A stretch of 64,000 nt of DNA from Xenorhabdus griffiniae. Lineage in GTDB: Bacteria > Pseudomonadota > Gammaproteobacteria > Enterobacterales > Enterobacteriaceae. Below the pieces are notes generated by a model. It was not told the origin of the DNA and did no database searches. It worked only from the letters and a program-made list of their open reading frames with translations. The DNA lies in NCBI RefSeq assembly GCF_037265215.1, contig NZ_CP147737.1, positions 4,000,001 to 4,064,000 of the forward strand. The letters run 5' to 3'. Both the position numbers and the translations under genes were made by a program. Below, one piece after another: positions 28,950 to 45,160 of the stretch (its first letter is position 1; each line of letters opens with the position of its first letter).

Positions 28950-29049
28950 CTCATAATCGCTTGGTCGCTGGTTCAAGTCCAGCAGGGGCCACCAGATTTA
29001 TCAAGGGGTTGCATCAACAGTGCGACCCCTTAGTTTTTTCTAGGATACC
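28950..29049 (+). repeat. Attachment repeat: tRNA-Ile2(CAU) 3' end plus terminator, copy 1
   Basis: Bases 28950-28994 are the anticodon-loop-to-CCA part of tRNA-Ile2 (CTCATAATCGC ... GGGGCCACCA). The 5' half is absent, so this is an att scar and not a tRNA gene. The 100-bp unit recurs at 45061-45160 with two mismatches. It forms the junction between the P2-like prophage and the satellite. Confidence 0.9.
29003..29039 (+). terminator. tRNA-type terminator within attachment repeat 1
   Basis: AGGGGTTGCA (29004-29013) pairs with TGCGACCCCT (29021-29030), with one weak pair, and TTTTTT follows. Confidence 0.8.
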
Positions 29050-29056
29050 CATAGGA

Positions 29057-29140
29057 TACCTTCTGGCAGTAGCGTGAGGTATAACTGATTAACACTCCTA
29101 CGGTAATGAGCCGTTGTCGTATTTCTCTCTGTGATACTTA
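29057..29140. repeat. Satellite left-end sequence, repeated at 51552-51636
   Basis: About 80 bp starting CTGGCAGTAGCGTGAGGTAT recur near 51.55 kb at roughly 85-90% identity. No gene is visible between 28866 and 29255 other than the attachment repeat and this segment. Confidence 0.8.
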
Positions 29141-29255
29141 TCACATCACTTGAAAATACGATGTTTGCCTTTCTTCTTCCCTAATCGCCACTTGAAATGC
29201 AAAACGCCATGATTTCTAAAATGGCAAAATTTGAATCTCAAGAACTGATAAGTAA

Positions 29256-29519
29256 TTATTTCAGTGGATTATTACGAGCATGACGCTCAATTAACTGACC
29301 ATAAGAATCAAAATAGCGACTCGGCCAGATTTCTGAGGGATGTATTTCGAGATAGTTAGCAATGATCCATTCGCCTTTCGGCCACGGACGACTGAGAGTA
29401 TTTGCTAGTGTAGATGAACTGAGTCCTGCTTCACGGGAAACAGCCGCTAAGGTTGTTCCACGTTTACGTAATGCAGCAATAATATCGGCTTGATGCCAGT
29501 CTTTTTTTATATCAATCAT
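29256..29519 (-). CDS. Ner/Nlp-like DNA-binding regulator, 87 aa
   Basis: KKDWHQADIIAALRKRGTTLAAVSREAGLSSSTLANTLSRPWPKGEWIIANYLEIHPSEIWPSRY is the Ner/SfsB family pattern (MuNer fold, helix-turn-helix). The start ATG 29519 fits the family; the frame to 29537 adds six residues. Ner proteins are transcription repressors of transposable phages. Here it is the most outward gene of the satellite's left end, preceded by a structured leader. Confidence 0.82.
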   Translation of the reverse strand: MIDIKKDWHQADIIAALRKRGTTLAAVSREAGLSSSTLANTLSRPWPKGEWIIANYLEIHPSEIWPSRYFDSYGQLIERHARNNPLK

Positions 29520-29559
29520 TCCTGCTACCCCTTCCATTAATTGAACATTGATGGTGGCA

Positions 29560-29745
29560 ATTCAGACAGGGTTAGCACTACTGGGAGCTACCTTCCAGCG
29601 AGGCCGAAGCCTCCCCTGCCTGAATCGCCATTGAATGGGCGATAGCAGACACACTGGTAGAAACCTCCTACCAGTGATAGCTCTTTGCAAGGGTGCTAAT
29701 CCTTGACCATTGGATTTTGCCAATGGCGGGGCTACTTTAACTGAT
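29560..29745 (-). ncRNA. Structured leader RNA upstream of the Ner-like gene (C4/CI-RNA-like candidate)
   Basis: Three strong hairpins are seen: CACTGGTAG/CTACCAGTG (near 29650-29677), CCATTGG/CCAATGG (near 29709-29728) and a longer pairing between ATTCAGACAGG (near 29571) and CCTGCCTGAAT (near 29617). The arrangement upstream of a regulator is reminiscent of P1/P7 C4 and P4 CI immunity RNAs. A minus-strand frame across it is likely spurious. The RNA identity is inference. Confidence 0.45.
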
Positions 29746-29820
29746 TGGTTTATCGGACTCAATAAGCGAATCAGTATAAACGCTTAACTTTTTGCGTTAT
29801 ATCTTATTAAGCGCGTTAAG

Positions 29821-29913
29821 GTGCTACTACTGTTCTTCACTCAAGATAAATATCTGCTCTGTATTCAGGCCATTGGAAGCTTTTTAGGCCTGTTACTATT
29901 CGGTTGGAGATGA
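29821..29913 (+). CDS. Possible small hydrophobic peptide, 30 aa
   Basis: A GTG-initiated frame encodes a leucine/phenylalanine-rich peptide (LLLFFTQDK ... IGSFLGLLLFGWR). No good ribosome site is visible. It could be chance in a 558-base stretch (29520-30077) that otherwise holds only the structured leader. Confidence 0.2.
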   Translation: MLLLFFTQDKYLLCIQAIGSFLGLLLFGWR

Positions 29914-30077
29914 AGAGCCTATGATATTCTGAAGGATATTGGTTAGACATCCATGTCTAGATTGGTATGTGATCGGTAGTAGTGATATTTGAAAATATAC
30001 ACTGTTATAAAAAAACACCAATACGAATCAGTATGATATTTATTCAATTATGGTAAGAGAAATTCATCTCTATAAGA

Positions 30078-30758
30078 CTAATATCCGATAGCTATATATT
30101 GCACTCGGGAACCTGACCAATTTCCCAGCGAGTCGTGAACAACAATTAAAAACTCTTCTTTAGATCTAATTTCAGCAGATATACCTTGTCCCCAATCACC
30201 ACCTCTAACATAATTACCAGTTACAACAAAGCATTTGTTTTTAAATGGAATTGAGAATTTACGCACGTCTATTGTACTTGTTGAACCGATTACAACCCCC
30301 CACTGAATCATTAATCCACTAGGAAGCATTTGATACCCAGATTCATTAAGTTTCGCATCAAAACTGTTCATATCTGGTACTTGGTTTGGTCCATTCCCTA
30401 CGGCTCTATAAACTAATTCAGATAAACCAAGATTCTTTACAAACTCCGCTTTATCCGGGATATCTGCCCCGTTCTGCTTCTTCTCTAAATAGAGATTTGA
30501 GTTATTATTGAGGGCGTTTTGGTTGGCTATATTAGCTAGATCATATGCTTTTTTAACAGCTTTAGATGTTGCGACGGTTATTTCACTGTCACTATCTGTT
30601 TCATTACTTAGTGTAACAAATCCCGGTTCTGCCTGAGTTGCGTAAGGATGATTTCGGCTCTGGGCGTGTTCTTTGATCGCGTCCTTCACATATTCGCGAG
30701 TTGGTACAACTACAACGTTATCTTCTAGGATTTTTGATTCAGGCTTTTTATCTTGCAT
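30078..30758 (-). CDS. Short phage tail fibre protein in the satellite, 226 aa
   Basis: The N-terminal part includes YVKDAIKEHAQSRNHPYATQAEPGFVTLSNETDSDSE and KAYDLANIANQNA, typical of phage tail fibre repeats. FVKNLGLSELV is a fibre shaft motif and the C-terminal GLMIQWG ... YIAIGY domain resembles the receptor-binding end of fibres. There is no attachment domain like that of the prophage 1 fibre. It is the only tail gene of the element, placed after TerL. It may alter the host range of the helper tail (inference). Confidence 0.78.
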   Translation of the reverse strand: MQDKKPESKILEDNVVVVPTREYVKDAIKEHAQSRNHPYATQAEPGFVTLSNETDSDSEITVATSKAVKKAYDLANIANQNALNNNSNLYLEKKQNGADIPDKAEFVKNLGLSELVYRAVGNGPNQVPDMNSFDAKLNESGYQMLPSGLMIQWGVVIGSTSTIDVRKFSIPFKNKCFVVTGNYVRGGDWGQGISAEIRSKEEFLIVVHDSLGNWSGSRVQYIAIGY

Positions 30759-30792
30759 ATTTATTCCCTCATTTAATCAACAATACAGATTG

Positions 30793-30999
30793 CTAAATAA
30801 CATGAAGGCGGTGAGATACTTCTCCGCCAGTGAACATCAATAAAATTGGTTCATCAATATTGGAGAGTACGACTTGATTTAATTTAGTGGATGAGTTGCA
30901 TGTTTTGTTGGCAGGATGACATAAAATAATAGATGGTAAATTAATAAAATTTATCCAGTGACTGACAAAATTCAGTGAAGTAAAGGTAAGATATCTCAC
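30793..30999 (-). CDS. Doubtful small ORF between terL and the fibre gene, 68 aa
   Basis: The frame starts at GTG 30999, with GGAG directly adjoining it, which is poor spacing. The sequence (RYLTFTSLNFVSHWINFINLP...) resembles nothing I know. It fills the gap between two genes on the same strand, which is the only support. Confidence 0.25.
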   Translation of the reverse strand: MRYLTFTSLNFVSHWINFINLPSIILCHPANKTCNSSTKLNQVVLSNIDEPILLMFTGGEVSHRLHVI

Positions 31000-31019
31000 C
31001 TCCTGAGCATTTGTTTTTC

Positions 31020-32681
31020 TTAAACCCCATCAAAGATATCCAGCCTCTGCTTCTGTTTTTCACTTAAGCTAAATGCAAACTCTTCATGATCGACTTGCCA
31101 TGTGCCAAAACTCATCAGGAACGCAATAGCCGGATCTATCTTATTCGCTGATTTATTCTTGTTCGGTTTGATATTGGCGTTCGCGTCCGTTTCCATCACC
31201 ACATTGGACATCGCCCACGCCAGCACCGGATCGCCATTGTGACGAATAATTTTGCGGTTAACAAAGACTTCGGCGGATTTGGCTACGGGACTATACCGCA
31301 TATAAGTTTGCGGGAACGGCTCAACATCTAAGCCTGCCCCCTGTAATTGCGTTCGTAGGTGTGTGGCGTTCCATGTATCGAAGCCCACCAGTTTGATATC
31401 AAAGTGCTGGCTGTCTTTGAGAATGTCATCACGGATACGGTCATAATCAATACAATCGCCGGTCGTGGTACGTATCCAGCCCATTTGTGCCCATTGGCGA
31501 TACACTGCCCGATTCTTATTGGCCGGATTCTGTAACTGAGCTTCCGGCAAGTAATGGCGGGTCAGTAATAACAGTTCATTATCCACGGGGAACGTGTAAC
31601 AGATACTGGTGATATCCCCCGTTGAAGATAAATCTAACCCAGCGTAGCATTCCAAACCTTTGAGGTCGTTTTCATCATAATCTGTCTGGCAGGCTTTCCA
31701 AGCCCCTTCGCCCATCCACGGCGTTTCACCCTGACACCAGATATTAAAGCGTTTGGTTAACATCTCTGTCCATTGTGAGGGAATGCCGCGGGCTTTCTGT
31801 ATCGTGTCATGCAGTGCGGCGCTGTCTACTGAGACATCCAGATTGGGATTGGCCTTTATCCAAAGGGCTTCATCATCAATCTCGTTTTCGTCGTCCAGTT
31901 CGTAGATCAGGGCAAACAGGGATTCATTTTGTTCTTCACCCTCCAATATCTGACAGCAATAATCATAGTGCTGTTTACAGGCGGATATCACGTTACTGCC
32001 CGCTGTGGTAATGGCAAACAGGATACCTTCGGGACGGGCACCCATCCCCAGCTCAAGGGCAGAGTAAACCGCGTTATCCGGGTGCAAATGATATTCATCG
32101 ACAATGGCGAGGCTGGGGTTCGTGCCCTCAATGGTGGCGGCTTTGGCGGCCAGTGGCTTTAACAGGCTGTTGCTCTTGGTATAAGTCACTTTGTGTTGCT
32201 GAATGGATACCCGTTTCTTGAGTGGTTTTGATAACAGGCACATCTGGCGGGCATCATCAAACACAATGCGCGCCTGATCACGGCTCACAGCGGCGGTATA
32301 GATATCCTGCTGCCCGTTCTCCATCACCAGAAACCAGTTAGCCAGTATCGCGGCTACCGTGGATTTGGCATTTTTGCGCGGCACCTGAATGTAAGCACTG
32401 CGGTATTTGCGGCGACCGGTGGCCTTCACTTTGAAGCCGAACAGGTTAGCAAAGGCGAATTGCTGCCACGGCTCAAGCATGATGGGTTTACCGCGCAAGT
32501 GCCCTTTGACGTGCGGGCAGAGACGGGCAAAGCCAATAAAACGCGCTACGACTTCGGTATCGAACACATAAAGCGGGTTATTCCGGTCATTATAATAGCG
32601 TTTCACGGCCTGTTTTACGCGCTTACAGGCCGGAATTGTGCCGTTTTCGATATCAAAAGCGTACTGTTCCCATGCGTTCAT
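31020..32681 (-). CDS. terL: HK97-type terminase large subunit, 553 aa
   Basis: The ATPase half has RKYRSAYIQVPRKNAKSTVAAILANWF (Walker A-like) and PSLAIVDEYHLHP (Walker B DE). The nuclease half shows YAGLDLSSTGDITSICYTF and VGFDTWNATHLRTQLQ. It belongs to the HK97/P27-associated terminase_1 family. With TerS it would package element DNA into the element's own capsids. TerS is 11 bases upstream. Confidence 0.93.
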   Translation of the reverse strand: MNAWEQYAFDIENGTIPACKRVKQAVKRYYNDRNNPLYVFDTEVVARFIGFARLCPHVKGHLRGKPIMLEPWQQFAFANLFGFKVKATGRRKYRSAYIQVPRKNAKSTVAAILANWFLVMENGQQDIYTAAVSRDQARIVFDDARQMCLLSKPLKKRVSIQQHKVTYTKSNSLLKPLAAKAATIEGTNPSLAIVDEYHLHPDNAVYSALELGMGARPEGILFAITTAGSNVISACKQHYDYCCQILEGEEQNESLFALIYELDDENEIDDEALWIKANPNLDVSVDSAALHDTIQKARGIPSQWTEMLTKRFNIWCQGETPWMGEGAWKACQTDYDENDLKGLECYAGLDLSSTGDITSICYTFPVDNELLLLTRHYLPEAQLQNPANKNRAVYRQWAQMGWIRTTTGDCIDYDRIRDDILKDSQHFDIKLVGFDTWNATHLRTQLQGAGLDVEPFPQTYMRYSPVAKSAEVFVNRKIIRHNGDPVLAWAMSNVVMETDANANIKPNKNKSANKIDPAIAFLMSFGTWQVDHEEFAFSLSEKQKQRLDIFDGV

Positions 32682-32692
32682 CGGGGTATCAC

Positions 32693-33052
32693 TCAGGCCA
32701 TCAGCACATCTAAATCGTCGGGTTCATCGCTTTCTACCGGATTTCGGCGGCGGGATACCGGATCAAAGCCCAACAGTGAGGACATTTTTATCATGATTTT
32801 TTCGGCATCGGCCTTCGCTTTCAGTGATGGGTTACTGGTCGCTGCACCGCGTGAACCTTCCACTGCGAACCCGCGCACTTCAATGTCTTCAACGGCTTTA
32901 CGGTAAATCGCATAGTTGACGCAATAGAGTTCTAAGTTGTTCCAGTCCGCCGGGCTGAGATCTTCCCGTTCATTGAGGATTTTGGCTTTCGATTTCCATT
33001 GCTGCGCGGCGATATCATTTAAATACTCAGGGGGTTTGGGTGCTCTTGCCAT
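32693..33052 (-). CDS. terS: P27-family terminase small subunit, 119 aa
   Basis: ARAPKPPEYLNDIAAQQWKSKAKILNEREDLSPADWNNLELYCVNYAIYRKAVEDI is the P27 TerS pattern, with DPVSRRR near the end. It recognises the packaging site and hands DNA to TerL. The 174-base gap to the HNH gene holds no other gene. Confidence 0.9.
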   Translation of the reverse strand: MARAPKPPEYLNDIAAQQWKSKAKILNEREDLSPADWNNLELYCVNYAIYRKAVEDIEVRGFAVEGSRGAATSNPSLKAKADAEKIMIKMSSLLGFDPVSRRRNPVESDEPDDLDVLMA

Positions 33053-33226
33053 AATAGATTGTTTCCTATGAAGTTACTGCTATTGAAAAAAGTACCGTGC
33101 ATAAAAATTGGAGGAGGCGGGCGGTTCCTCTGAGAGGGGCATTTGTCATTTTTTACTCCCCCACCCTAATCATTTCATTTGAAACTGTTTTTCGTGCAAT
33201 GAATATCAAATCGTGATGTGACTGTT

Positions 33227-33661
33227 TCATTCTGCAACTAACCAGCCTCGATGCCTGGCCGCTTTTGCTTCCAGTTCCCGATACTCACCGTTCTTGCGCT
33301 TCTGCTTGGTGATGGGATCTGTCTGCACGGTCTTACAGTTATGGCAACCATGACACAGGGCTTGATGGTTGGATTCAGGCCAGAACAGCACATCACTGTC
33401 ACCGTCTATCGGGATAATGTGATCCACGATGGTTGCAGGTGTGTAGGTACTGGCTTTCAGGCAAATCACACATAAGGGATTCGCTTTCAAATACATCAAC
33501 CGATATTTACCCCATCGGTTGCTATAACCGCGTGCTGTTCGGGTTCCTCGCTTACTGTCCTGCTGTCGTCTGGCTTCCCGTTTGTGCTGCTCACAGCGAC
33601 CAGACGTTACCCGCTCACGACAACTCGGATAAGTACAGCGTTTTAATGGTTGCCACGGCAT
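33227..33661 (-). CDS. HNH endonuclease of the packaging module (HK97 gp74-like), 144 aa
   Basis: The HNH core is intact: NPLCVICLKASTYTPATIVDHIIPIDGDSDVLFWPESNHQALCHGCHNCKT supplies the His metal site and Cys pairs. In HK97-like phages such a protein stimulates terminase cutting. It sits between connector and TerS genes as in HK97 and cfPICIs. Confidence 0.88.
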   Translation of the reverse strand: MPWQPLKRCTYPSCRERVTSGRCEQHKREARRQQDSKRGTRTARGYSNRWGKYRLMYLKANPLCVICLKASTYTPATIVDHIIPIDGDSDVLFWPESNHQALCHGCHNCKTVQTDPITKQKRKNGEYRELEAKAARHRGWLVAE

Positions 33662-33963
33662 CAGTAGACTCCTACATCACGATAGACAGACCACAGGGAT
33701 TTAATGGTAAAAGGCACCTCTTTAAGTTCTGCTTCCGTTTCCATCGCCCGATTCTCATACAGCAAGCCGATATAGAGTAAGCAGCCCACTTTAATAGCAG
33801 GGCTGAATACCAAGCCTTCACCAAATCGTTTACCGATATGTTGCTGGCAAACTTCCAATGCAGCCCCGGCATAGCCCTTAAGCAGTTCATCTTCAAGCGT
33901 ATTGCTTTCGTCTATCCGGCAATGTTGTTTGATTTCATTCAGGGGGATTTCGATATCAGGCAT
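33661..33963 (-). CDS. Head-tail connector (gp6-like), 100 aa
   Basis: MPDIEIPLNEIKQHCRIDESNTLEDELLKGYAGAALEVCQQHIGKRF is the head-tail connector signature of HK97 gp6. It overlaps the adaptor gene by 8 bases and abuts the HNH gene. Confidence 0.85.
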   Translation of the reverse strand: MPDIEIPLNEIKQHCRIDESNTLEDELLKGYAGAALEVCQQHIGKRFGEGLVFSPAIKVGCLLYIGLLYENRAMETEAELKEVPFTIKSLWSVYRDVGVY

Positions 33964-34294
33964 ATTTCACACCTCCCTTGCAAAGCAGTTCTAACTGAGT
34001 TCGTTTCGGATCGGGAATAACCATCACAATGTCGAAAAATTGACCTTGAGTACTGTCACCCTGATAGAAGATACGATTTGCGGTGGTGATATCAGCACGG
34101 TAACGCAGCCAGATACGCACGGTGGCTTCGGTGAACACTGCACCAGAGGCGAGCAATTCCCGCCCGTTAATGTGCCTGATCTCCGCCCAGACGGTCGCGA
34201 CATCCTGCCATTCCTGCATACGTTGACCTGACGGTAATTTGATCTGGGTGAAGTTCTGCAATGTAATGCGATGTCTTAATGCTCCTGCTCTCAT
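33956..34294 (-). CDS. Head closure/head-tail adaptor, 112 aa
   Basis: ATG 34294 (MRAGALRHRITLQN) overlaps the portal stop as ATGA. MQEWQDVATVWAEIRHINGREL and the Arg-rich WLRYRADITTANRI are the SPP1 gp16/HK97 adaptor family pattern. It would join the head to a tail provided by a helper phage. Confidence 0.87.
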   Translation of the reverse strand: MRAGALRHRITLQNFTQIKLPSGQRMQEWQDVATVWAEIRHINGRELLASGAVFTEATVRIWLRYRADITTANRIFYQGDSTQGQFFDIVMVIPDPKRTQLELLCKGGVKYA

Positions 34295-35508
34295 TCCTTG
34301 CCCTCCGGTTGTTTCTTCACTTCTACCGTTTGCTTCCATGCCTGACTGAATTCATCGCCCCCTTCACGGGGGGATAAGCCTTCCCGTTCACGGGCTTCAT
34401 TCGGGCACATCACACCGGATTTAATCGCCGTCTCATAACTCTGGAAGCGTTCTTTCGGATTGGCGCGAAGCAGGTCAGCGGTATCAAATTCGACTTGGTA
34501 GCGAATGCCTCTTGTTGGTGATGTCATCAGCAAGGCCGATTTGATTTGTTGCTCAAAGTTGGCAAGCCACGGGCGCATGGTAATAATCAGAAAAGCGCGG
34601 GACGCTTCGCTAAAGTTGCTGTAGGTACTGTTTGAGTACTCTTGCAGGAAGATAGGGCTGACATTGAACATCCGGGCAATATCTTCAATCGTGAAGCGAC
34701 GAGAGGCCAGCCATTCGGCATCTTGGTTGCTCATGCCTAATTGCTGGTATTCCATCCCGCCCTCAAGAATGGGCGTTTTGCCAGCATTACGGGCACCTTT
34801 GTAACGTTCGAGGGCTTCCAGTGCCTTATTGCCCTTGAGTCCATCCAGCCAGTCAGCGGATTTAATCACGCCCGCCGCCATCATGCCCTCTTTCATAATG
34901 CTTGCGCCGTGGCGCTGTTGTGCCAGCCCTAAGCCCAATGTCTCACGGCAAATAGTGACAGGTGAGCGACCTAAAAAGCCATCTTCGGTGGCATAGCGTA
35001 AATGCAACACTTCTTCTTGCAGATAGGTTTTCACTTTGCCGCTATAAGGTTCGGTGATGGTATAGGTGAATCGGTGATCGGATAGCCGTTGTGCTACCAC
35101 CGCCGACGGCGGGTAAGGGTGTAAGGATTGCGGCTGACCATCCCGCCCCCAGACTATCACGGCATAGGCATTACCATTGAGTAAGCAATGACGCATCAGG
35201 GTGCGCTTAAACTGAAAAGGCGTCTGGCAGTCATTCGGGCATTCATTGAGCAAATAATCTACGGGGTGATCACTGAGCCATTCACGGGACTCTTTGCCGT
35301 TCTGGTGCCGAACCCGATACAGGTAACAAGGCATGGTCGCCACGGCTTCACTAATCACCGTGACGGCATTCATCACCGCGGGCAGGCCTTCGGCTGTCGA
35401 GGGTGAAACATGCTCACCCGATTTGGTGTTAGATGTGCCTGCCAGAGAAAGAAAATCATCAATGGTCATGCTGCGCGTTTCTGGGGCTTTTCGCTTAAAA
35501 GGCCACAT
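34291..35508 (-). CDS. HK97-family portal protein, 405 aa
   Basis: Typical markers are VMNAVTVISEAVATMPCYLYR, HPVDYLLNECPNDCQTPFQFKRTLMRHCLLNGNAYAVIVW, and the ARMFNVSPIFLQEYSNSTYSNFSEASRAFL block. It forms the packaging vertex of the element's own procapsid. Overlaps and short gaps tie it into the capsid operon. Confidence 0.93.
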   Translation of the reverse strand: MWPFKRKAPETRSMTIDDFLSLAGTSNTKSGEHVSPSTAEGLPAVMNAVTVISEAVATMPCYLYRVRHQNGKESREWLSDHPVDYLLNECPNDCQTPFQFKRTLMRHCLLNGNAYAVIVWGRDGQPQSLHPYPPSAVVAQRLSDHRFTYTITEPYSGKVKTYLQEEVLHLRYATEDGFLGRSPVTICRETLGLGLAQQRHGASIMKEGMMAAGVIKSADWLDGLKGNKALEALERYKGARNAGKTPILEGGMEYQQLGMSNQDAEWLASRRFTIEDIARMFNVSPIFLQEYSNSTYSNFSEASRAFLIITMRPWLANFEQQIKSALLMTSPTRGIRYQVEFDTADLLRANPKERFQSYETAIKSGVMCPNEAREREGLSPREGGDEFSQAWKQTVEVKKQPEGKE

Positions 35509-35510: not shown

Positions 35511-36056
35511 TTACACCTCGGACAGTTGCAGCCAGTAATGACGCAAATCAGCATTGTTGGGCTTGACTGCGTTTAATGAGCGCTTGGCAATCTCAACACT
35601 GCTTGTCGGATAGGCCGGAATGCTGGTCAGACTGATTTCCCTAAGCTCTGCTACCAGAACAGTTCTGATATAGGGTTCTTGACCGACATCCCATTGATCT
35701 TTGATTGCCCTGAATCCAAAGCTAACGCCTTCTATGTCGCCCCGATTAATCATGGTGAGCGCATCACGCCCCAATTGCGTATCAGGTAACACCAGTTCAA
35801 AGCGTAACCCGGTATCGTCTGCACTCACGGTCAGCGTTTTAGATGTTGTTCTACCCAGCAATGAAGCATGGTCGTGTTCCCACAAGAAACGAATATCTGC
35901 ATTATTAGTTAAACAGGCAGCAAAGGCGCTTTTATCGAATCGTTCAATAAATTCACCAAACAGCAATTGTGAATTATCCATCCAGCGCACGGCGTAACCG
36001 GTGATCTTTTTCTCATTAATTGAAAAGTCAGCCGTTCTTAATTCAATATCATTCAT
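35511..36056 (-). CDS. HK97-family prohead protease, 181 aa
   Basis: ITGYAVRWMDNSQLLFGEFIERFDKSAF, the catalytic His in FLWEHDHASLLGRT and the Ser in DIEGVSFGFRAIKDQW are the U35/HK97 protease hallmarks. It matures the capsid by removing the delta domain. The ATG overlaps the HNH homing gene by 4 bases. Confidence 0.92.
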   Translation of the reverse strand: MNDIELRTADFSINEKKITGYAVRWMDNSQLLFGEFIERFDKSAFAACLTNNADIRFLWEHDHASLLGRTTSKTLTVSADDTGLRFELVLPDTQLGRDALTMINRGDIEGVSFGFRAIKDQWDVGQEPYIRTVLVAELREISLTSIPAYPTSSVEIAKRSLNAVKPNNADLRHYWLQLSEV

Positions 36057-36635: not shown

Positions 36636-37787
36636 TTATTTACTGGCTGTTTTCACTTCCAGTACTTTGATGGCGTTGGAGTCCACCAGCCCACCGCCTA
36701 AATATTTGTCGGAGTGCACCTTATAAAATCCTGGCTCGGTGATATTGTCAGGGCGGGTACGGGTGCCGGTTTCATGGTCAACAATGAAGTAACCGCGTTT
36801 GAAGTCGCCCAGACCAATGAGGCTATCGGGCATAAATTCAAGATAATGGACAGGCAAGCCCAGCAGCATATCAGGATCACCGGCTTGCAGACGTTCGCGC
36901 CAGATATAATCCCCGTTACCGTTTTTCAGCTTCTGCACTTGGGCGGCTGTTGTGGAGTTCATTACCCACACTGCATTTTTGCGGTATTTGTTCCTGAGCA
37001 GGAATTTAAGGTCAATCAGGCTATCGGCTTCCAGTTTGGTTGCTTCCAGCTTTTGCAGGGTGCCAAAAGTGCGTACCTTATCGGCTTGGGTATCACGGGG
37101 ATAAGACAGGAAGCCTTTTGCTTTTTTGCTGCCATCACCACTCACAAGATCCGTTTCTTCGGTATCCACAAAGGTGTCTGCAATTTCTGAGGTTAGCCAG
37201 CCTAAAATATCTACATCGCTAAAATCGATGATTTCTTGGGTAGTCTTAGGGTAGGCATAGATAGGAAACAGTTTGATGCTGACTTCTTCCATCTTCGGTG
37301 TCACCGTCTCACCGCGTGCCTTGCCTTCTTCCCCGTGGGCTACAACGGCGCCACCGACCGAAACAAGTTGTTTATATTCGTTGCTGCGTGTGGTCTTGAT
37401 TGTACAGATTCGGCGCATGACCGACTCATCCGCCAGTTGCTGCATGATCTGCTTGTTCAGTTCCGGGATAACGGTATAGCCGCCCTCTGAGGGTACGCCC
37501 GTAGACAAGGTGCGGGTTTCTCCGGTCAGAATATAGTGGCGCAGTTCGTCATTGCTGAGTGTTTCATTGGCAGGCTGTTTTTTTGCCCGATTGCGTTCTT
37601 CATCAGACAGCGCCTCATAACGGGCGATTTCAGCATTGAGTACATCAGATTGGCTGCGCAATTCGTCGAACTGTTTCTCTTCATCTGTGGTCAGGGAGCG
37701 CTTTTCGTCTTCGGCTCTGGTCAGCAACGAGCGCATTTGTTGGGTTAAATCGGCTTTTTGCTGGCGTAATTCGAGTAATTTTTTCAT
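36636..37787 (-). CDS. HK97-fold major capsid protein, 383 aa
   Basis: The N-terminal delta domain (MKKLLELRQQKADLTQQMRSLLTRAE...) is coiled-coil; the shell domain starts near LSTGVPSEGGYTVIPELNKQIMQQL and includes SDVDILGWLTSEIADTFVDTEETDLVSGDG. The end carries the usual DSNAIKVLEVK. It first forms a prohead with the protease, then expands. It leads the packaging operon. A broken paralogue is at 51637-52190. Confidence 0.94.
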   Translation of the reverse strand: MKKLLELRQQKADLTQQMRSLLTRAEDEKRSLTTDEEKQFDELRSQSDVLNAEIARYEALSDEERNRAKKQPANETLSNDELRHYILTGETRTLSTGVPSEGGYTVIPELNKQIMQQLADESVMRRICTIKTTRSNEYKQLVSVGGAVVAHGEEGKARGETVTPKMEEVSIKLFPIYAYPKTTQEIIDFSDVDILGWLTSEIADTFVDTEETDLVSGDGSKKAKGFLSYPRDTQADKVRTFGTLQKLEATKLEADSLIDLKFLLRNKYRKNAVWVMNSTTAAQVQKLKNGNGDYIWRERLQAGDPDMLLGLPVHYLEFMPDSLIGLGDFKRGYFIVDHETGTRTRPDNITEPGFYKVHSDKYLGGGLVDSNAIKVLEVKTASK

Positions 37788-38288: not shown

Positions 38289-38975
38289 ATGAGTAGTAGA
38301 AGTGATGTAATAGAAGGACGGTTAGTTTATACCGAAAAATTAGGGTGGGTAGATACTGGGCATTCAAAAGGTAATGATGCCAGAATGTTAATGGCTGCTA
38401 TAAATTCAGGTGATGATACTAAAGAATCATACTTTACCATTAAATACACACAATACATGGGTCTTGGATTAAAATATGGCACATCTAAAATAACAAGATG
38501 GAGGGTTAGAAGAGGATTATCTTTAAATGATAAAAAGAGAGTTGCACTTACTATTATGATGTATACCACTCATCTATTTGAAGCGCATCAAGATTCATTT
38601 CCCTTTAATTGGTATACAGATAGTGGGTACAGTGGTGAGGATTTGGTTTCAAATCTACTTGGTTTTTATCAGGCTATAAATGGAATTGATTATTTACCTC
38701 AGCTTCAATCTATAAGTAAAGAAGATGCACTAAAAAGATGGGATTATTATGGCGCTATAGGAAAGTATAAAAATAAAATGTTTAAGCCTTTATTGTTCCC
38801 TGATCCCAAAAAATACCCTAATAATGCTAGACCATATTATTCTTCTTTGCCTACATTTCTTAATACTATATCACCGATCACTGATATAGATAGGAGTCAT
38901 TTGCTAATACATATTGAAGATAGAACAGGATATAACATACATGCAGTAAGAGATGTGGGGATTGAACTTGAATAA
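38289..38975 (+). CDS. Candidate T6SS effector of unknown family, 228 aa
   Basis: A soluble protein starting MSSRSDVIEGRLVYTEKLGWVDTGHSKGND. That opening resembles DUF4056-type proteins, with a conserved His in DTGHS. DSGYSGEDLVSNLLGFYQAI near residue 115 is another likely active or structural motif. No signal peptide. It is followed by a membrane-anchored small protein and a convergent hcp gene, the layout of an effector/immunity pair with its carrier. The biochemical activity is unknown. Confidence 0.5.
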   Translation: MSSRSDVIEGRLVYTEKLGWVDTGHSKGNDARMLMAAINSGDDTKESYFTIKYTQYMGLGLKYGTSKITRWRVRRGLSLNDKKRVALTIMMYTTHLFEAHQDSFPFNWYTDSGYSGEDLVSNLLGFYQAINGIDYLPQLQSISKEDALKRWDYYGAIGKYKNKMFKPLLFPDPKKYPNNARPYYSSLPTFLNTISPITDIDRSHLLIHIEDRTGYNIHAVRDVGIELE

Positions 38976-39384
38976 GATTATTAAAATTACATTTATAGCT
39001 CTGTTTTTTTTAGGGCTGATTTTTACTATCCCTATTTTATTTGTAGATAACCATTTTTCATATACAAAAAATGACTTTATTAGGTATAATTTATTTACCT
39101 TTGATGAAGTTAAAAACATTCCTATCATTTCAAATGATTATATCATATCCTATGACTCACCAGATGGTGTAAAACCAATGGCTAATTCAATTCTATTTTC
39201 AAATGTAAATCCAAATAGTAAAGTAGAATTAATAAATTATATTGAAAAATTAGGTTATATAAAAGATATAAACGCATATTGGAATACAAATGGAAGCGAA
39301 TCTTGGAGTAAAGGGAATTTGTTTATACAGATAAAACAAAATGATACTGACCGTACCATTTTGTTTTTAGTTGAGAAGAATTAA
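38953..39384 (+). CDS. Membrane-anchored small protein, candidate immunity protein, 143 aa
   Basis: One N-terminal membrane segment (IIKITFIALFFLGLIFTIPILFV) precedes a periplasmic domain of about 110 residues. The start overlaps the candidate effector gene by 23 bases, tying the two together. A periplasm-facing anchor suits neutralisation of a toxin delivered to the periplasm. The alternative start at TTG 38962 is possible. Confidence 0.55.
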   Translation: MWGLNLNKIIKITFIALFFLGLIFTIPILFVDNHFSYTKNDFIRYNLFTFDEVKNIPIISNDYIISYDSPDGVKPMANSILFSNVNPNSKVELINYIEKLGYIKDINAYWNTNGSESWSKGNLFIQIKQNDTDRTILFLVEKN

Positions 39385-39860
39385 AATACATTCTCTTCTC
39401 TTATACTGTAGCCTGATGTGCCAGCGATGTGATGTGTCCATGTTATGCTATCATATGAAATTGTTATACTTTCATATGGTTGCATATCATTATGGCTTAG
39501 TGAATTAGGATAATGGCTGGAGATGTTTTTTATAGTGGCATTCGTTAATTTGATAGAGTAAAATTTTTCTAATCCCCCGGCTGAACTATTCCTATATATA
39601 TCAAGAAGACAGTCTAAATGCTCATTATTTGATATTGAAACTCCTAATAATGGCGATGATTTATCTATTGGCTTTGTTATTATTATAGGTTGGTGATTTA
39701 CATTCTGTTCTCTACTGATATCGTGATCTATAGAGTAAACCAATATTTTATCTTTATTTTCTTCTTGATATTTATTACCTATTGAATCATAGGTTGAACA
39801 ACCTGCTGATATCAACCCTTGCTTTTTGCCGTTTAAGGTCATGTAAATAATGTTAGCCAT
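39381..39860 (-). CDS. Hcp-family T6SS tube protein/effector carrier (TssD), 159 aa
   Basis: MANIIYMTLNGKKQGLISAGCSTYDSIGNKYQ, the KPIDKSSPLLGVSISNNEHL block and the AGTSGYSI end are typical of Hcp1-type proteins. Hcp hexamers stack into the T6SS inner tube and can carry small effectors in the lumen. No other T6SS structural genes are nearby, so this is an orphan hcp using a T6SS encoded elsewhere. It lies on a satellite element and has a close relative at 47638-48381. Confidence 0.85.
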   Translation of the reverse strand: MANIIYMTLNGKKQGLISAGCSTYDSIGNKYQEENKDKILVYSIDHDISREQNVNHQPIIITKPIDKSSPLLGVSISNNEHLDCLLDIYRNSSAGGLEKFYSIKLTNATIKNISSHYPNSLSHNDMQPYESITISYDSITWTHHIAGTSGYSIREENVF

Positions 39861-40472: not shown

Positions 40473-41132
40473 TTATAGAGAGGATTTAAAGCCTCGGCAC
40501 TCAGGCACTGACGGCAGCCACTCTTCGGCTTCTTCGGACAACTCAACGTTATAAGAATAACCTTTCTTGGTTCGCACTTTCCGATACTCTTTTTTATACT
40601 CCAGCATAATTTTGGGAAGAGATTCGCCGAACTTGGTCAGTGTGAGCGGGCGTTCAAAGCCGTGCGCTTCCATAAAAGAAAGATAAGCATGATATAAATA
40701 CATTCTCGGTGCCCGTGGACTGATATTCTTAGTGCCCATCTTCATCCCAGTTGCATCATTGACAGCGACCAGATAACCGCAAAAGCGATACAACGGATCG
40801 GAATTGCTTTTTACCGTTAACGCCTCGTTAGAATCGCGTTGCGCCTGTAGCAGCTTTTTAGCCTCGTTCTGGTCGGCAAATTCGTTTAATAAATGGCGGA
40901 TAATAATGGGCAGTTCCCGACTGATTTTCTCCGGTAAGTGTGGATCTTTAATAAAATGAAAGCGGTCAGTACCGCCGCAAATCGGGCAAGCGCCGTGTTT
41001 GCCTTTTGCCGGAACATCAACACCACAAGCAGGCAACAGGCTTTGCCAGTGATTGATGGCTGATGTTTTCACTGTTCGAATCACATCTAACGGGCGGCTG
41101 TTCTGATTATTATTTCCCTGACTCATGATCAC
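40473..41132 (-). CDS. Truncated P4-alpha-like protein: zinc ribbon joined to origin-binding domain, 219 aa
   Basis: Residues 30-60 are the primase zinc ribbon (CPICGGTDRFHF). Immediately after, at IKDPHLPEKISREL, the sequence continues as the C-terminal domain of P4-type alpha proteins (EFADQNEAKKLLQAQRDSNEAL ... GMKMGTKNISPRAPRMYLYHAYLSFMEAHG). The primase catalytic and helicase domains, some 500 residues, are absent in frame. The remaining protein should still bind the nearby iterons but cannot prime or unwind. It overlaps the next gene upstream by 4 bases. Confidence 0.8.
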   Translation of the reverse strand: MIMSQGNNNQNSRPLDVIRTVKTSAINHWQSLLPACGVDVPAKGKHGACPICGGTDRFHFIKDPHLPEKISRELPIIIRHLLNEFADQNEAKKLLQAQRDSNEALTVKSNSDPLYRFCGYLVAVNDATGMKMGTKNISPRAPRMYLYHAYLSFMEAHGFERPLTLTKFGESLPKIMLEYKKEYRKVRTKKGYSYNVELSEEAEEWLPSVPECRGFKSSL

Positions 41133-41539
41133 TCATCCTCGCCATTAACCGCTGCATAGAGCGAATAGTAAACTTCCTGATTAATATCACAGGCTAGCGA
41201 CAGCAAATCGTGTAACTCTTCCGAACAGTGTTGGCTTGCCTGTTCAAGAATGACCTCATATAAAGAGGTACATAAACCCGCACGAAATGAAGCCTGACCT
41301 AATGGATCGGATTTTCTGTATACAATGCAATTAACTAATTTATTCACTGGATTCTGTGGGGCATATTTCGACAGGTCGCGATAAACCTCCTGATGAATGC
41401 CGTGTGCCAATGCAATCAGGTTATTTAAATTGATTTCACAGCGTTCATCTTTGGCTTTTTGGGTAATGAATGTGAAAAGTGAAATACCCAGACCAGCACG
41501 ATATAGCGCCTGTTTCAGTGAGATAGGGTTATTACTCAT
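41129..41539 (-). CDS. Hypothetical protein with an internal duplication, 136 aa
   Basis: Two related halves are visible: QALYRAGLGISLFTFITQKA ... ALAHGIHQEVYRDL (about 10-55) and QASFRAGLCTSLYEVILEQA ... SLACDINQEVYYSL (about 80-125). Each looks like a three-helix unit. It is coupled to the alpha-like gene by a 4-base overlap. Function unknown. Confidence 0.6.
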   Translation of the reverse strand: MSNNPISLKQALYRAGLGISLFTFITQKAKDERCEINLNNLIALAHGIHQEVYRDLSKYAPQNPVNKLVNCIVYRKSDPLGQASFRAGLCTSLYEVILEQASQHCSEELHDLLSLACDINQEVYYSLYAAVNGEDE

Positions 41540-41723
41540 GGTATGCCCCCTGAACGGAGGTCAAGCACATAGGGAAGATTTTAGGCAAACAGACTTTGCC
41601 CTTTCTGGTTAGAAAGGTATATTGATACATAGCTACCTCGATACTGTTATTATCGTTGGTTGTTAGCCCTCGTTCAGTGTTGGTAGCACTGTTCGGGGGC
41701 GTTGATTTTATAGGTTTTACCAT
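41532..41723 (-). CDS. Short Ash/Icd-like satellite protein, 63 aa
   Basis: The PPNSATNTERG segment is one I associate with Ash-family proteins that precede the alpha gene in P4-like elements. The ATG lies in the CATG that also contains the + strand start of the Arc-like gene. It overlaps the next gene by 8 bases. The call is tentative. Confidence 0.4.
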   Translation of the reverse strand: MVKPIKSTPPNSATNTERGLTTNDNNSIEVAMYQYTFLTRKGKVCLPKIFPMCLTSVQGAYHE

Positions 41724-41964
41724 GTTAAGGTGGTCACCTATTAAAGATAAAACTAATTCAATAGGTGGTCACTTGTCAACAATAAAACGAGACAAAAGCC
41801 CGAAAGGTGATGGGCAATCCCCACAATTTAGAATGCGTATAACTCCAGAACTGAAAGAACAGTTTGAAGATGCAGCCCTAAAATCAGGAATGAGCCTAGC
41901 TAATTGGCTTAAAACTTTGGGACGTAATGAACTAGAACGATTAGGAATTAAACCTAAAGGCTGA
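41722..41964 (+). CDS. Arc-like ribbon-helix-helix repressor, 80 aa (or 63 aa from TTG 41773)
   Basis: QFRMRITPELKEQFEDAALKSGMSLANWLKTLGRNELERLG is an Arc/MetJ ribbon-helix-helix domain. Two starts are possible: ATG 41722, or TTG 41773 preceded by AGGTGG. The two operator-like repeats lie between these starts, which favours autoregulation and perhaps the later start. It is divergent from the alpha operon. Confidence 0.7.
   Translation: MLRWSPIKDKTNSIGGHLSTIKRDKSPKGDGQSPQFRMRITPELKEQFEDAALKSGMSLANWLKTLGRNELERLGIKPKG
41728..41774. promoter_or_regulatory. Twin operator candidates for the Arc-like repressor
   Basis: AGGTGGTCACCT (41728-41739) is a near-perfect palindrome, and AGGTGGTCACTT (41763-41774) repeats it 35 bp on. 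They sit at the divergent starts of the alpha operon and the repressor gene. Confidence 0.55.
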
Positions 41965-42060
41965 GCTGAATAAATTTTATTAATTCGGTTCATAGGTCTT
42001 TTATCCTAAAAATTAATTATTTCGAAGGTGACTTTTGCAATGTCACCTTTTATTTTTTTA

Positions 42061-42270
42061 TTAGGCTGTCTGAACACGGCGAGTTGAAACCAAATAACCA
42101 TCAAGATCTGATTTTAAATAAATAACTTTACGGCCTACCTTATGATATGGAATTTTTTCTTTTCCGGTATATGCCCAATTAGCGAGAGTTTGAGCAGTAA
42201 CACCAAGATAAGCAGCGGCTTCTGCTCTGGTGAATTTATCTAAAATTGCTGAGGTAGGATGTGTTTTCAT
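42061..42270 (-). CDS. AlpA/excisionase-like DNA-binding protein, 69 aa
   Basis: FTRAEAAAYLGVTAQTLANWAYTGKEKIPYHKVGRKVIYLKSDLDGYL is a MerR-type winged helix typical of AlpA and Xis proteins. ATG 42270 or 42279 may start it. In PICIs AlpA-like proteins switch the island on. It lies between the repressor and the integrase. Confidence 0.8.
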   Translation of the reverse strand: MKTHPTSAILDKFTRAEAAAYLGVTAQTLANWAYTGKEKIPYHKVGRKVIYLKSDLDGYLVSTRRVQTA

Positions 42271-42482
42271 TTTTATCACTATGTATTATTGATTATCAGT
42301 AGTGATAGATTACTTATAACTAACTATTAAAAATAGTAGTCCATTTTGTATAAAATCTTATACAGAAATCGCCACGATCTTGTATATTGATTGCTACTAA
42401 TTAAAAAAATAGGTAAATGTAAACTAAAACAATCTGATTGACATTTACCTAATCAAAATTCAGAATAATAATTCTGTAAAAT

Positions 42483-43380
42483 TTATCTTTTTTGGTTAAT
42501 TATTTTGGATAAATCTTTAATTGAAATCATCGGTTCTTTTCTATGTATCATTCTATGACAGTTAGAGCAAACTATTGCTAAATCAGATAGTTCATTTCTA
42601 GTTTCACCATCACTTTTATGTAATGGATTTAAATGATGGACTTCACAAAAATTCTCACCAATGTCACCATAAAACTCAAAAAAATTAAAATCACAAACTT
42701 CACATCTTAGAACGCCTTTCTCATCTAAAACGCTTTTTTCTTTTTCTTAACAAGGTCGTAGTTTCTTTCTCTTATAATATGAGATCGTAAACGTGGATTA
42801 CCTTCAATTCCAAAATAATCTAGATCAATATCTGGAATGTTATTATCTACTTTTCTACCATAAATTAAGTCGAGAACTTTTTTAACATGTTCTTCACTCT
42901 CAGGCTTATCTGCATACCAAATAAGGCTTTGCCCAATCCCTCCTTCTACTTTTCTAGGTATTAGCAGAGTGCGTTTTTCAACAGGTAATAAAAAAGCATC
43001 ATCCCATAATGCCTTTATACGAAATATATTTATATCGTTTCTTTTCTGCTTTTCAGAGGGAGTATCTAATTCCTGTGGTTCACGATATACAGTTGCATTT
43101 TTATACCAACCAACAACAACCGTTCCGCCACGTTCATGGCGGGCGAGCCAAACAACTGTGATATTATCAATTTTGTTATCAGATTTACCAGCCCTAGCCT
43201 CTCTATATTAATGTTACCCGGTGATTGAACATATCCATAGACAAAACCATTCACATTAGTGAAATTACAGACTTCAAGCCCTATGTTCTCTTCATTATAA
43301 GAGCCACCATCTCGAAGAGAATCACCATCAATTCCATCATATTGATTCATCCAACCAGTATTACAAAAAATAATCGTCAT
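42483..43380 (-). pseudogene. HNH endonuclease (McrA/restriction-like), broken by two single-base losses
   Basis: The N-terminal part (MTIIFCNTGWMNQYDGIDGD...) runs in one frame to 43194, where the CCC (+ strand) needs one more base to continue as GAGKSDNKIDNITVVWLARHERGG. A second break is the T6 run at 42734-42739; beyond it the HNH domain is complete: CEVCDFNF, CEVHHLNPLH, LAIVCSNCHRMIH. The repaired protein would have about 298 residues. Its place between alpA and int is a common site of anti-phage cargo. Either a pseudogene or two assembly errors. Confidence 0.75.
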
Positions 43381-43444
43381 ATATGCCTCTAGTATATTTG
43401 ATAGATATAGCTAAACAAATTATTTTAATATTTCTTGTATTTTT

Positions 43445-44845
43445 CTATTCGGATAATTGAAAAAGAATTCTTCTTTTATCTTCTTCATTCATTCCAGACA
43501 GCATAGAAATAATTTTTTGATCTAATGCTTTTGTATTCTCCATCAGGCCAGCATGTTCCAGTATAGCTTGCTCAATTTTTTTAGCCGGCTCTTGCAATTC
43601 GTCAGCGCCAAAATGCAGATAGCCCTGAGTTACATCAGCACTGCGAAATGTCCGATGATTCAATAGCCGTTTTAAAATATAGCTACCGACTCCATTTAAT
43701 TCAGCAATTGTACCAAATGTACGGCGGGCATCATGCCATTTGAAAGGTATAGGCTTGAGCATATCCAAATTTGGCTCAGGAACAGTAGCAGCGCTGATAC
43801 GAGAAATAATGTGGCGACATTCTTTGATAACACCTTTCCGACCGGGGAAAACAAGTTTTTGTTCTCCTTGCTTCATCGTTAAGCGACGACGAAATAAATT
43901 CCTTAAAGTGTCAGTAATAGGAAGCTCAAGCGGATCACCATTTTTGGTGGTTTCTATCCAGAAATAACGACCGCCCATGTTTACACGTTCCCAAGTAAGG
44001 TTAAAAATCTCTGCTTGGCGTAATCCAGTAAACATAGCCATTTCAACCGCATCACATACAGCCGCTGCGATATCATCTCTTTCATTTTCCGCTTTTACCC
44101 GCACAATCGTTATAGCACTGAACCAGCGCTCAAGTTCATGTGTGCGAATACGCTCTATTTTTCTGACTGTGCCATGCCATTTACATTTTGTGCTCAAAAC
44201 TGCTGTAGGCGGCTCAGGTAGCAAAACTTTTTCTTCCTCATCTCGATAATGGTCATGTGCGAAACGATAAACAGCCCTTAATGCTCTCGCCCATAAGTCA
44301 GCTTGTGCTTTGCTACCACTTCCTACACCCTTACGCAAGGTTGCTTTATTAGCTCCAAACCAAACCGTACCATCGGTGATAGCTTTGTGCCTAAGTTCGA
44401 CACGTTCCCTATTTATTGATACGAGTGATTGTTGCATCCAATCACCAGAAAAGTTTGTGAGTATGGAGCGATATTGATTAGCTGTAGAGGGCTTTAACCG
44501 ATGCCCTCGATTCGAAATATAAGTTTCTATAACATCCGATAATGTCACTGTGGTTTTTTTACTGACACGTTTAATCACATTTGGATTCTGGCCTGTAGTA
44601 GCGACTTCACCAAGAACTTCTAATGCCTTTGCTCTTGCATTATCAATTGTAAGATCAGGAAAACGCCCCAATGTGGCACGGATAAATTTTCCATTTCTCT
44701 TTCTGGAGATGCAAAAACTTTTAACACCGCTAATGCCAATACGAATACGTAACCCGTTTACCAGTGTGTCCCCATATTCAACTTGCCCACGTTTTGCGGG
44801 TGGTAAGCTCTCTAATTTAGCTTTCGTAAATTTGAAAGTTTCCAC
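43445..44845 (-). CDS. int: P4-type tyrosine integrase of the satellite, 466 aa
   Basis: An N-terminal DUF4102-like arm-binding domain (KAKLESLPPAKRGQVEYGDTLVNGLRIRIG) is followed by the core domain and catalytic residues: TGLRQAEIFNLTW (Arg), FKWHDARRTFGT (H-x2-R), LLNHRTFRSADVTQGYLHF (His and Tyr). It is transcribed away from the attachment repeat at 45061, 216 bases from it. Confidence 0.93.
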   Translation of the reverse strand: METFKFTKAKLESLPPAKRGQVEYGDTLVNGLRIRIGISGVKSFCISRKRNGKFIRATLGRFPDLTIDNARAKALEVLGEVATTGQNPNVIKRVSKKTTVTLSDVIETYISNRGHRLKPSTANQYRSILTNFSGDWMQQSLVSINRERVELRHKAITDGTVWFGANKATLRKGVGSGSKAQADLWARALRAVYRFAHDHYRDEEEKVLLPEPPTAVLSTKCKWHGTVRKIERIRTHELERWFSAITIVRVKAENERDDIAAAVCDAVEMAMFTGLRQAEIFNLTWERVNMGGRYFWIETTKNGDPLELPITDTLRNLFRRRLTMKQGEQKLVFPGRKGVIKECRHIISRISAATVPEPNLDMLKPIPFKWHDARRTFGTIAELNGVGSYILKRLLNHRTFRSADVTQGYLHFGADELQEPAKKIEQAILEHAGLMENTKALDQKIISMLSGMNEEDKRRILFQLSE

Positions 44846-45060
44846 GTCTTCCCTCTTTATATTAAAAAGTGAAATTCCACTTTTCTGTGTTTACCAAGCG
44901 ATTAGAGTATCCTGTGAATCGTTTTCAAGTTCTAGGATACCTATAGGATGCCATAGACAGGTATTTTAGGTTATTTCTGGTTATTTATACAGTTGTTTAA
45001 TTGTTCATAATTAATTGAAAATTAAGAATAAGTATAAATGAGTAGAGCGTTAATTCCCGC

Positions 45061-45160
45061 CTCATAATCGCTTGGTCGCTGGTTCAAGTCCAGCAGGGGC
45101 CACCAGATTTATCAAGGGGTTGCATCAAAAGTGCAACCCCTTAGTTTTTTCTAGGATACC
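45061..45160 (+). repeat. Attachment repeat: tRNA-Ile2(CAU) 3' end plus terminator, copy 2
   Basis: Identical to 28950-29049 except at two positions, both in the terminator stem region. The CCA end is at 45103-45105. It marks the right end of the satellite. An IS1-like element is inserted at its last base. Confidence 0.9.

What the first reader, a model, noticed from the sequence alone, without database searches (positions are those of the whole stretch)
28950..45160. Capsid-forming phage-inducible island (cfPICI-like) at tRNA-Ile2 beside a P2-like prophage
Between two 100-bp att repeats lies a 16-kb element with its own integrase, AlpA-like protein, alpha-like protein, HK97-type capsid, protease, portal, adaptor, connector, HNH, TerS and TerL, in the order known from cfPICIs, but no tail genes except a short fibre. 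Such islands make their own heads and take tails from a helper. The neighbouring prophage has a contractile P2-like tail, so either it or another siphophage must supply tails.
Basis: partly seen in the sequence, partly recalled or inferred. Interest (0 to 1): 0.8.

Follow-up and report, generated by a model that had tools for sequence, protein, structure and literature searches.

The report
Weapon-carrying head-making phage satellite
In the insect-associated bacterium Xenorhabdus, this 16-kb stretch looks like a phage parasite that carries genes for its own DNA shell but none for a tail, together with parts of a weapon that bacteria use against each other; this copy has probably lost the ability to copy itself.

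Summary
The observation largely holds. Window 28950-45105 is a capsid-forming PICI (cfPICI) in a Xenorhabdus genome: integrase, AlpA-like gene, HK97-type head and packaging genes, no tail operon. Its TerL is 71-79% identical to four listed records, then at most 36% among the rest listed. TerL relatives of 90% or more occur in 25 of 30 Xenorhabdus genomes, some as fragments.
Corrections. (1) The att core is 45-46 bp of tRNA; the second 100-bp repeat also holds the left end of a second, IS1-interrupted cfPICI. (2) The primase-replicase lacks 587 codons in frame, so this copy is probably replication-defective. (3) The P2-like neighbour is an unlikely helper: the head-tail connector is 70% identical to that of a lambda-like siphophage prophage in this genome, against 22-33% for TerL, portal, capsid and adaptor. 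(4) The "fibre" belongs to a Xenorhabdus cassette family with a conserved leader, often far from tail genes.
Apparently new: a slot between primase and capsid holds T6SS Hcp with effector/immunity-like genes in 17 of 33 Xenorhabdus loci and 0 of 49 others. A slot after TerL holds defence genes or the fibre. My paper searches (listings only) showed no T6SS cargo on a satellite.

The parts
28950..28994 (+). att core (tRNA 3' end), attL of the island; the element-side flank continues to 29049
   Evidence: 100-bp repeat; 46 bp shared with the full tRNA at G000:3950349-3950424; near-identical flank in L040/L056/L059
29256..29537 (-). Ner/Nlp-like HTH_35 regulator
   Evidence: PF13693 E 9.5e-38, phrog_769; found downstream of TerL in 28 of 40 loci
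29550..29635 (-). C4 antisense RNA directly upstream of the HTH_35 gene
   Evidence: RF01695, 70.4 bits, gathering 45; also in L031, L040, L054, L059 and the Erwinia element L199, not in 8 other loci tested
30078..30758 (-). short fibre-like protein of the 'QDKKPE' family (shaft repeat plus gp53-like tip, no P2-type N-terminal domain)
   Evidence: PF03406, PF21882; family and contexts
30759..30872 (-). conserved leader of the short-fibre cassette
   Evidence: 31 hits in 28 of 29 loci scanned, 30 before short fibres; the genome's 3 sites all precede short fibres; 75 sites in 24 of 30 genomes, 0 control hits
31020..32681 (-). terminase large subunit
   Evidence: phrog_9 E 3e-173, PF03354/PF20441
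32693..33052 (-). terminase small subunit
   Evidence: PF05119, phrog_83
33227..33661 (-). HNH endonuclease of the packaging module
   Evidence: PF01844, phrog_144
33661..33963 (-). head-tail adaptor Ad1
   Evidence: PF05135, phrog_40
33956..34339 (-). head closure / connector Hc1, apparently exchanged with siphophages
   Evidence: PF05521, phrog_25; 70% to L085 and 75% to L134 prophage Hc1; tree
34291..35508 (-). portal
   Evidence: PF04860 E 1e-94
35511..36056 (-). prohead protease
   Evidence: PF04586
36053..36592 (-). HNH_3 homing-type endonuclease between capsid and protease
   Evidence: PF13392, phrog_99; no match in the 40 relatives at E 1e-4
36636..37787 (-). HK97-type major capsid protein
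   Evidence: PF05065 E 9e-61
38289..38975 (+). DUF4056-like candidate T6SS effector (cargo)
   Evidence: Pfam hit below cut-off (E 0.17); homologues P0040 and P0051 carry PF13265 and the name DUF4056; AF2 model pLDDT 90.7, no PDB match
38953..39384 (+). small membrane-like protein (by eye), candidate immunity partner
   Evidence: no family hit; occurs with the DUF4056-like gene in the island and 5 of 40 relatives, never apart
39381..39860 (-). T6SS tube protein Hcp/TssD (cargo)
   Evidence: PF05638 E 7e-25, TIGR03344 198 bits
40473..41132 (-). primase-replicase with in-frame loss of 587 codons (219 aa; intact relatives 785-814 aa)
   Evidence: PF08273 plus PF03288; breakpoint against L031, L054, L067, L069
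41129..41539 (-). conserved small protein upstream of the primase
   Evidence: phrog_35285
41656..41964 (+). Arc-like repressor
   Evidence: phrog_228 E 5e-6
42061..42279 (-). AlpA-like HTH/excisionase
   Evidence: PF12728, phrog_66
43445..44845 (-). tyrosine integrase
   Evidence: PF00589, PF13356; orthologues 85-87% at the same tRNA in L040, L056, L059
45061..45105 (+). att core, attR of the island; 45106-45160 is the left end of a second cfPICI
46046..49510 (-). remnant of the second cfPICI: immunity-like gene, interrupted effector, Hcp (47638-48429), primase C-terminus (48866-49510)
   Evidence: PF05638, PF03288; primase piece 85% to the island's

Best explanation
A cfPICI of a Xenorhabdus-wide lineage, integrated at a tRNA(CAU) gene in tandem behind two prophages. 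Inferred working: a siphophage helper induces it; intact members replicate with their own primase-replicase, build a head and package with their own terminase, and join it through Ad1/Hc1 to a stolen lambda-type tail. Shown by sequence: the gene set, the insertion site, and a connector (Hc1) that resembles those of local siphophages while the rest of the head follows the satellite lineage. Between primase and capsid it carries Hcp with a candidate effector/immunity pair, probably used through the host's own T6SS; after TerL it carries a lectin-like short-fibre cassette. This copy lacks most of its primase-replicase and is probably stranded unless another satellite or phage replicates it.
For: Gene set and order, as in the E. 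coli element L185. TerL 71-79% to vB_KppS-Ant (16.5 kb, 'induced prophage'), Pmp8 (15.3 kb), Pmp7 (10.7 kb) and Klebsiella record PQ569648 (106.5 kb); 5 of 3022 records lie at 60-80%, the rest below 60%, and the other 11 listed at 34-36%. tRNA site with orthologous integrases. Hc1 70% to prophage L085 against TerL 33, portal 30, Ad1 32, protease 37, capsid 22%; 75% to L134 of the genome tagged same species. Against cfPICIs of other genera the order reverses: Hc1 27-59%, portal 63-88%. The Hc1 tree needs 5 label changes where 2 would do. Primase loss. Hcp in 17 of 33 loci and 0 of 49 non-Xenorhabdus loci, 15 of which show a primase hit upstream of the capsid. Two T6SS sheath loci and 16 Hcp genes in the genome.
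Against: No excision, induction, packaging or secretion data. The Hc1 tree has low-support forks and long branches. Hc1 was not detected in 8 of 22 prophage loci, and seven related satellites with Ad1 lack Hc1, so the connector is not universal; its similarity could be plain recombination. A resident prophage need not be the helper: a review passage says none of 17 prophages of the E. coli host strain detectably mobilised its cfPICI, which foreign phages HK106 and HK446 did (PMC11389934, passage). A second locus, L062, has an independent in-frame primase fusion, which weakens the reading that the loss is mere damage.
Confidence: 0.75

Rival explanations
1. The P2-like neighbour (window about 1-28950) is the helper and supplies a contractile tail.
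For: It is adjacent, uses the same tRNA site and has a tail module.
Against: Its capsid, terminase and tail proteins are of other families; the island's Hc1/Ad1 belong to HK97/lambda-type neck families and Hc1 matches a siphophage at 70%. Its fibre shares only a 21-aa repeat with the island's.
Confidence: 0.06
2. The short fibre is the island's own tail tip: it is fitted to the stolen tail and changes what the particle binds.
For: Seven of 40 satellite loci carry it 260-333 bp after TerL on the same strand, with three tip families on one N-terminus (PF21882, PF25670, PF07484). Similar genes sit next to tail genes in some prophages.
Against: It lacks the N-terminal part of P2-type fibres. The same leader precedes orphan copies and, twice, PA-IL-like lectin genes. 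In the 7 loci where tail-type genes (my reading) lie beside it, it points against them.
Confidence: 0.25
3. It is a defective HK97-like prophage that simply lost its tail genes.
For: All head genes are phage-like; the primase is damaged.
Against: The same tailless head order recurs in loci of many Enterobacterales and Pasteurellaceae, with TerL far from that of listed phages.
Confidence: 0.05
4. The shortened primase is functional as it stands, for instance as a regulator, so the loss is adaptive.
For: The loss is exactly in frame and both ends stay 86-96% identical to relatives. L062 has a separate in-frame fusion of the same two ends, 153 aa, with a different junction.
Against: 19 of 26 relatives with a C-terminal hit keep a 785-814-aa ORF; of the other seven, six are cut at a contig end or broken without a clean fusion. 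L062 also lacks portal and adaptor hits, so it is decayed.
Confidence: 0.2

Closest known systems
cfPICIs such as the E. coli/Klebsiella elements (recalled: Alqurainy et al. 2023; the E. coli QL57EC locus L185 and phage record vB_KppS-Ant L184 were read here)
   Same: int, AlpA-like gene, primase, capsid, protease, portal, Hc1, Ad1, HNH, TerS, TerL; no tail operon; about 16 kb
   Different: many Xenorhabdus members carry Hcp/effector cargo and some a short-fibre cassette, and those tested mostly have C4 RNA plus an HTH_35 gene after TerL; this copy has a gutted primase
P4-like satellites and P1/P4 C4 antisense RNA immunity (recalled)
   Same: a D5-type primase, AlpA-like gene and a C4 antisense RNA
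   Different: own HK97 heads and terminase; C4 lies after TerL, in front of the HTH_35 gene
Orphan T6SS Hcp-effector-immunity modules (DUF4056 candidate effector in Salmonella SPI-6, PMC11669294, passage)
   Same: Hcp or a T6SS locus with a candidate effector in a two-gene unit
   Different: here on a probable satellite, in a fixed slot between primase and capsid

Membership tests
cfPICI | own integrase and site-specific insertion | tested here: met
   integrase 43445-44845; same tRNA in L040, L056, L059
cfPICI | AlpA-like regulator near the integrase | tested here: met
   42061-42279, PF12728/phrog_66
cfPICI | own primase-replicase | tested here: inconclusive
   present but lacking 587 codons; 785-814 aa in 19 of 26 relatives
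cfPICI | own head and packaging genes in the known order | tested here: met
   same order in L185
cfPICI | no tail operon | tested here: met
   only a fibre-like ORF among the 20 ORFs tested
cfPICI | packaging proteins form a group apart from phages | tested here: met
   TerL 71-79% to four listed records, then at most 36% among those listed; no TerL tree was built
cfPICI | induced by a helper and packaged in own heads with the helper's tails | not testable with these tools
   needs induction; a candidate siphophage is in the genome
P4-like satellite | no own capsid, remodels P2 heads (recalled) | tested here: not met
   own HK97 capsid and terminase
T6SS Hcp-effector-immunity module | Hcp beside a candidate effector and small partner | tested here: met
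   by gene content; the effector assignment rests on remote DUF4056 similarity
T6SS Hcp-effector-immunity module | secretion and toxicity of the effector, neutralised by its partner | not testable with these tools
   none

The most novel reading that the evidence does not exclude
Xenorhabdus cfPICIs are a delivery system for interbacterial weapons and surface lectins: one conserved head chassis with three exchange points, namely a connector swapped to match local siphophage tails, a T6SS Hcp-effector-immunity slot, and a defence-or-lectin slot. They spread weapon plus immunity between competing strains, so that a cell gains T6SS ammunition by infection.
Probability: 0.4. Interest if true: 0.8.

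Novelty: new variant of a known kind. Interest (0 to 1): 0.58.

Why it matters
Phage satellites are known for anti-phage cargo (recalled); two paper searches showed no report of T6SS cargo on one (2 and 6 papers listed, none opened). If the slot works, satellites move antibacterial weapons between bacteria. The connector pattern gives a sequence handle on a practical problem, which phage supplies the tail, and predicts helper pairs that can be tested by deletion.

Tried and rejected
P2-like prophage as helper: its head and tail genes are of other families. Fibre as a piece of the neighbour's fibre: a 21-aa repeat is the best match. The 100-bp repeat as the att pair of one element: rejected after reading relatives. 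PDB fold search with the DUF4056-like model: no match at E 0.001 or better; I make nothing of the weaker ones. RNA structure for the fibre leader: no compensatory change in any of 29 predicted pairs, so I claim only a conserved leader. Promoter/terminator scan around it: nothing found. The effector-like proteins L041, L044 and L047 had no Pfam hit above cut-off. PADLOC on 10 chosen proteins of the TerL slot: 5 of 10 hit. No TerL or portal tree was built.

Papers: limited to an open library. The central cfPICI papers did not come up as records, and what I say of them is recalled. PMC11389934, PMC13345910, PMC11566119, PMC12419801 and PMC11669294 were seen as passages only; all other papers as listings.

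Counts are not independent: L034/L035 overlap on one contig and L037/L038 are near copies. Dropped: 8 of 41 rows for the Hcp count (no capsid, or under 3.5 kb upstream), 1 of 41 for the fibre count; both counts include the island. The 0 of 49 count includes loci too short, or of another gene order, to show the slot; 44 of the 49 have a capsid hit.

Full report
WHERE IT LIES. The window is G000:C1:4000001-4064000 of a one-contig 4.77-Mb genome. The tRNA gene (anticodon CAU) lies 50 kb left of the window at 3950349-3950424. Copies of its end follow at 3999530, 4028950 and 4045061, bounding a 49-kb prophage, the P2-like prophage of the window's left part, and the island. Three relatives whose integrases are 85-87% identical sit at the same tRNA, which is intact at their HTH_35 end (L040, L056, L059).

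THE REPEAT. The 100-bp repeat is real, but beyond the 45-46-bp core it continues into element sequence; the relatives show that this flank belongs to the left end of such elements. The second copy is thus followed by 55 bp of another cfPICI's left end, then IS1, then that element's immunity-like gene, an interrupted effector, Hcp and a primase end (46046-49510). Further on are an Ogr/Delta gene and, by my reading of the translations without a Pfam hit, pieces of a P2 gpA and a cfPICI capsid.

WHAT IT IS. Ten core genes hit their families, in the order of an annotated E. coli element (L185). TerL is 79% to vB_KppS-Ant, a 16.5-kb record labelled induced prophage, 71% to two Pasteurella records of 10.7 and 15.3 kb, and 79% to a 106-kb Klebsiella record. 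Five of 3022 matching records lie at 60-80%; the other 11 of 15 listed are at 34-36%. One genome scan kept 80 of 114 loci, 49 of them outside Xenorhabdus. In 25 of 30 Xenorhabdus genomes a TerL match reaches 90% (some only as fragments), often several times; this genome has two more, at 0.49 and 1.87 Mb.

WHO SUPPLIES THE TAIL. Island proteins against two siphophage-type prophages of the same genome: TerL 32-33%, portal 29-30%, capsid 22-23%, Ad1 32-35%, protease 37-38%, but Hc1 70% to the prophage at 2.67-2.71 Mb and no Hc1 match in the other. The first has HK97-gp10, gp17-like, lambda-type tube, HK97-type tape measure and gpJ-type tip genes, so it is lambda-like. Over 22 prophage loci of the genus, the island's Hc1 has a match in 14 (46-75%) while portal stays at 29-36%. 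Satellites of other genera show the reverse: portal 63-88%, Hc1 27-59%. Among Xenorhabdus satellites Hc1 varies from 59 to 87% beside portals of 92-97%. The Hc1 tree mixes phages and satellites (5 label changes, minimum 2; several forks weak). Seven satellites with Ad1 have no Hc1 (L030, L034, L035, L039, L042, L045, L050); in four I read, portal abuts Ad1. My reading is that the connector is exchanged with local siphophages because it must fit their tails. Plain recombination is not excluded, and residence alone proves nothing: none of 17 resident prophages detectably mobilised one E. coli cfPICI (PMC11389934, passage).

THE PRIMASE. The island's 219-aa protein joins a zinc ribbon to a D5 C-terminal domain. 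Aligned to L031, L054, L067 and L069 the two halves match at 86-96%, and the relatives have about 1.76 kb more at one point; against L031 (806 aa) 587 codons are missing. Nineteen of 26 relatives keep a 785-814-aa ORF. No other locus shows this junction, but L062 has its own in-frame fusion of the same two ends, 153 aa. The lost part is where primase and helicase domains normally sit (recalled). I read it as loss of self-replication; a retained function of the fused ends is a live rival.

CARGO SLOT 1. Between primase and capsid lies T6SS Hcp (PF05638, TIGR03344) with two genes on the other strand. The 228-aa one is DUF4056-like through its homologues. DUF4056 was named a candidate T6SS effector in Salmonella (PMC11669294, passage) and placed in the lipocone superfamily (PMC12419801, passages). 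Of 33 loci with capsid and at least 3.5 kb upstream, 17 have Hcp here. Companions include a DUF6402 protein (PF19940) with a DUF6201 partner, and, by eye, Cys/His proteins with lipoprotein-like partners. Several loci without Hcp carry other pairs there, one of them a reverse-transcriptase-like gene by my reading. None of the 49 non-Xenorhabdus loci gave an Hcp hit; 15 of them show a primase hit upstream of the capsid. The genome has two T6SS sheath loci and 16 Hcp genes, at least four in cfPICIs or remnants by position (4039432, 4047953, 489380, 2887434). Paper searches for T6SS with phage satellite or PICI listed 2 and 6 papers, none opened, none on point by title.

CARGO SLOT 2 AND THE FIBRE. 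After TerL come a variable slot, a C4 antisense RNA and an HTH_35 gene. C4 passes its gathering score here, in L031, L040, L054, L059 and in Erwinia L199; it was not found in L030, L184, L187, L188, L200, L206, L209 or L224. Of ten slot proteins tested, five matched PADLOC (AbiP2-type RT, retron RT, HNH effector, two candidate families), and L054 has a retron msr RNA. Seven of 40 loci carry the short fibre. Its middle matches P2-type fibres, which have a longer N-terminal part that it lacks. Of 120 homologues listed (183 found), all that name an organism name Xenorhabdus. A leader of about 115 nt precedes it in satellites, prophages and orphan sites (31 hits in 28 of 29 loci); the pattern has 75 matches in 24 of 30 genomes and 0 when read backwards. 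Of the 30 matches held as loci, 27 lead into short fibre or tip proteins by reading, one into a PA-IL-like gene and two run off the contig; PA-IL was confirmed by Pfam on another gene with the leader (L281). So the fibre is best seen as mobile surface-lectin cargo with its own leader; a tail role is possible but not favoured.

VERDICT.

Noticed in passing
window 29550-29635 (-): C4 antisense RNA (P1/P4 immunity type) directly before an HTH_35 gene; C4 also found in four other Xenorhabdus cfPICIs and one Erwinia cfPICI; its target was not worked out.
   Followed up: partly
window 30759-30872 (-) and 24 of 30 Xenorhabdus genomes: A conserved ~115-nt leader, with no Rfam match, before short fibres, collar-tip proteins and PA-IL-like lectins; no compensatory base changes seen.
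   Followed up: partly
L030, L034, L035, L039, L042, L045, L050: cfPICIs without a detectable Hc1 connector; perhaps they borrow the helper's.
   Followed up: partly
L062 (oriented 5825-6286): A second, independent in-frame fusion of the two ends of the cfPICI primase (153 aa).
   Followed up: partly
L186 (E. coli strain 10, 2862653-2889859): A cfPICI sits inside the TerL gene of an HK97-like prophage (partial TerL genes on both sides).
   Followed up: no
window 45160-52373: Scrap yard of a second cfPICI and a P2-like phage with IS1 and a DDE transposase.
   Followed up: partly
window 54002-63985: Ketoacyl synthase, AMP-binding and lipid-type genes that look like an aryl polyene or related cluster (label recalled).
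   Followed up: no
L091 9543-10382: Orphan short fibre with the same leader beside an isocitrate-dehydrogenase-like gene (by eye), no satellite genes seen around it.
   Followed up: no
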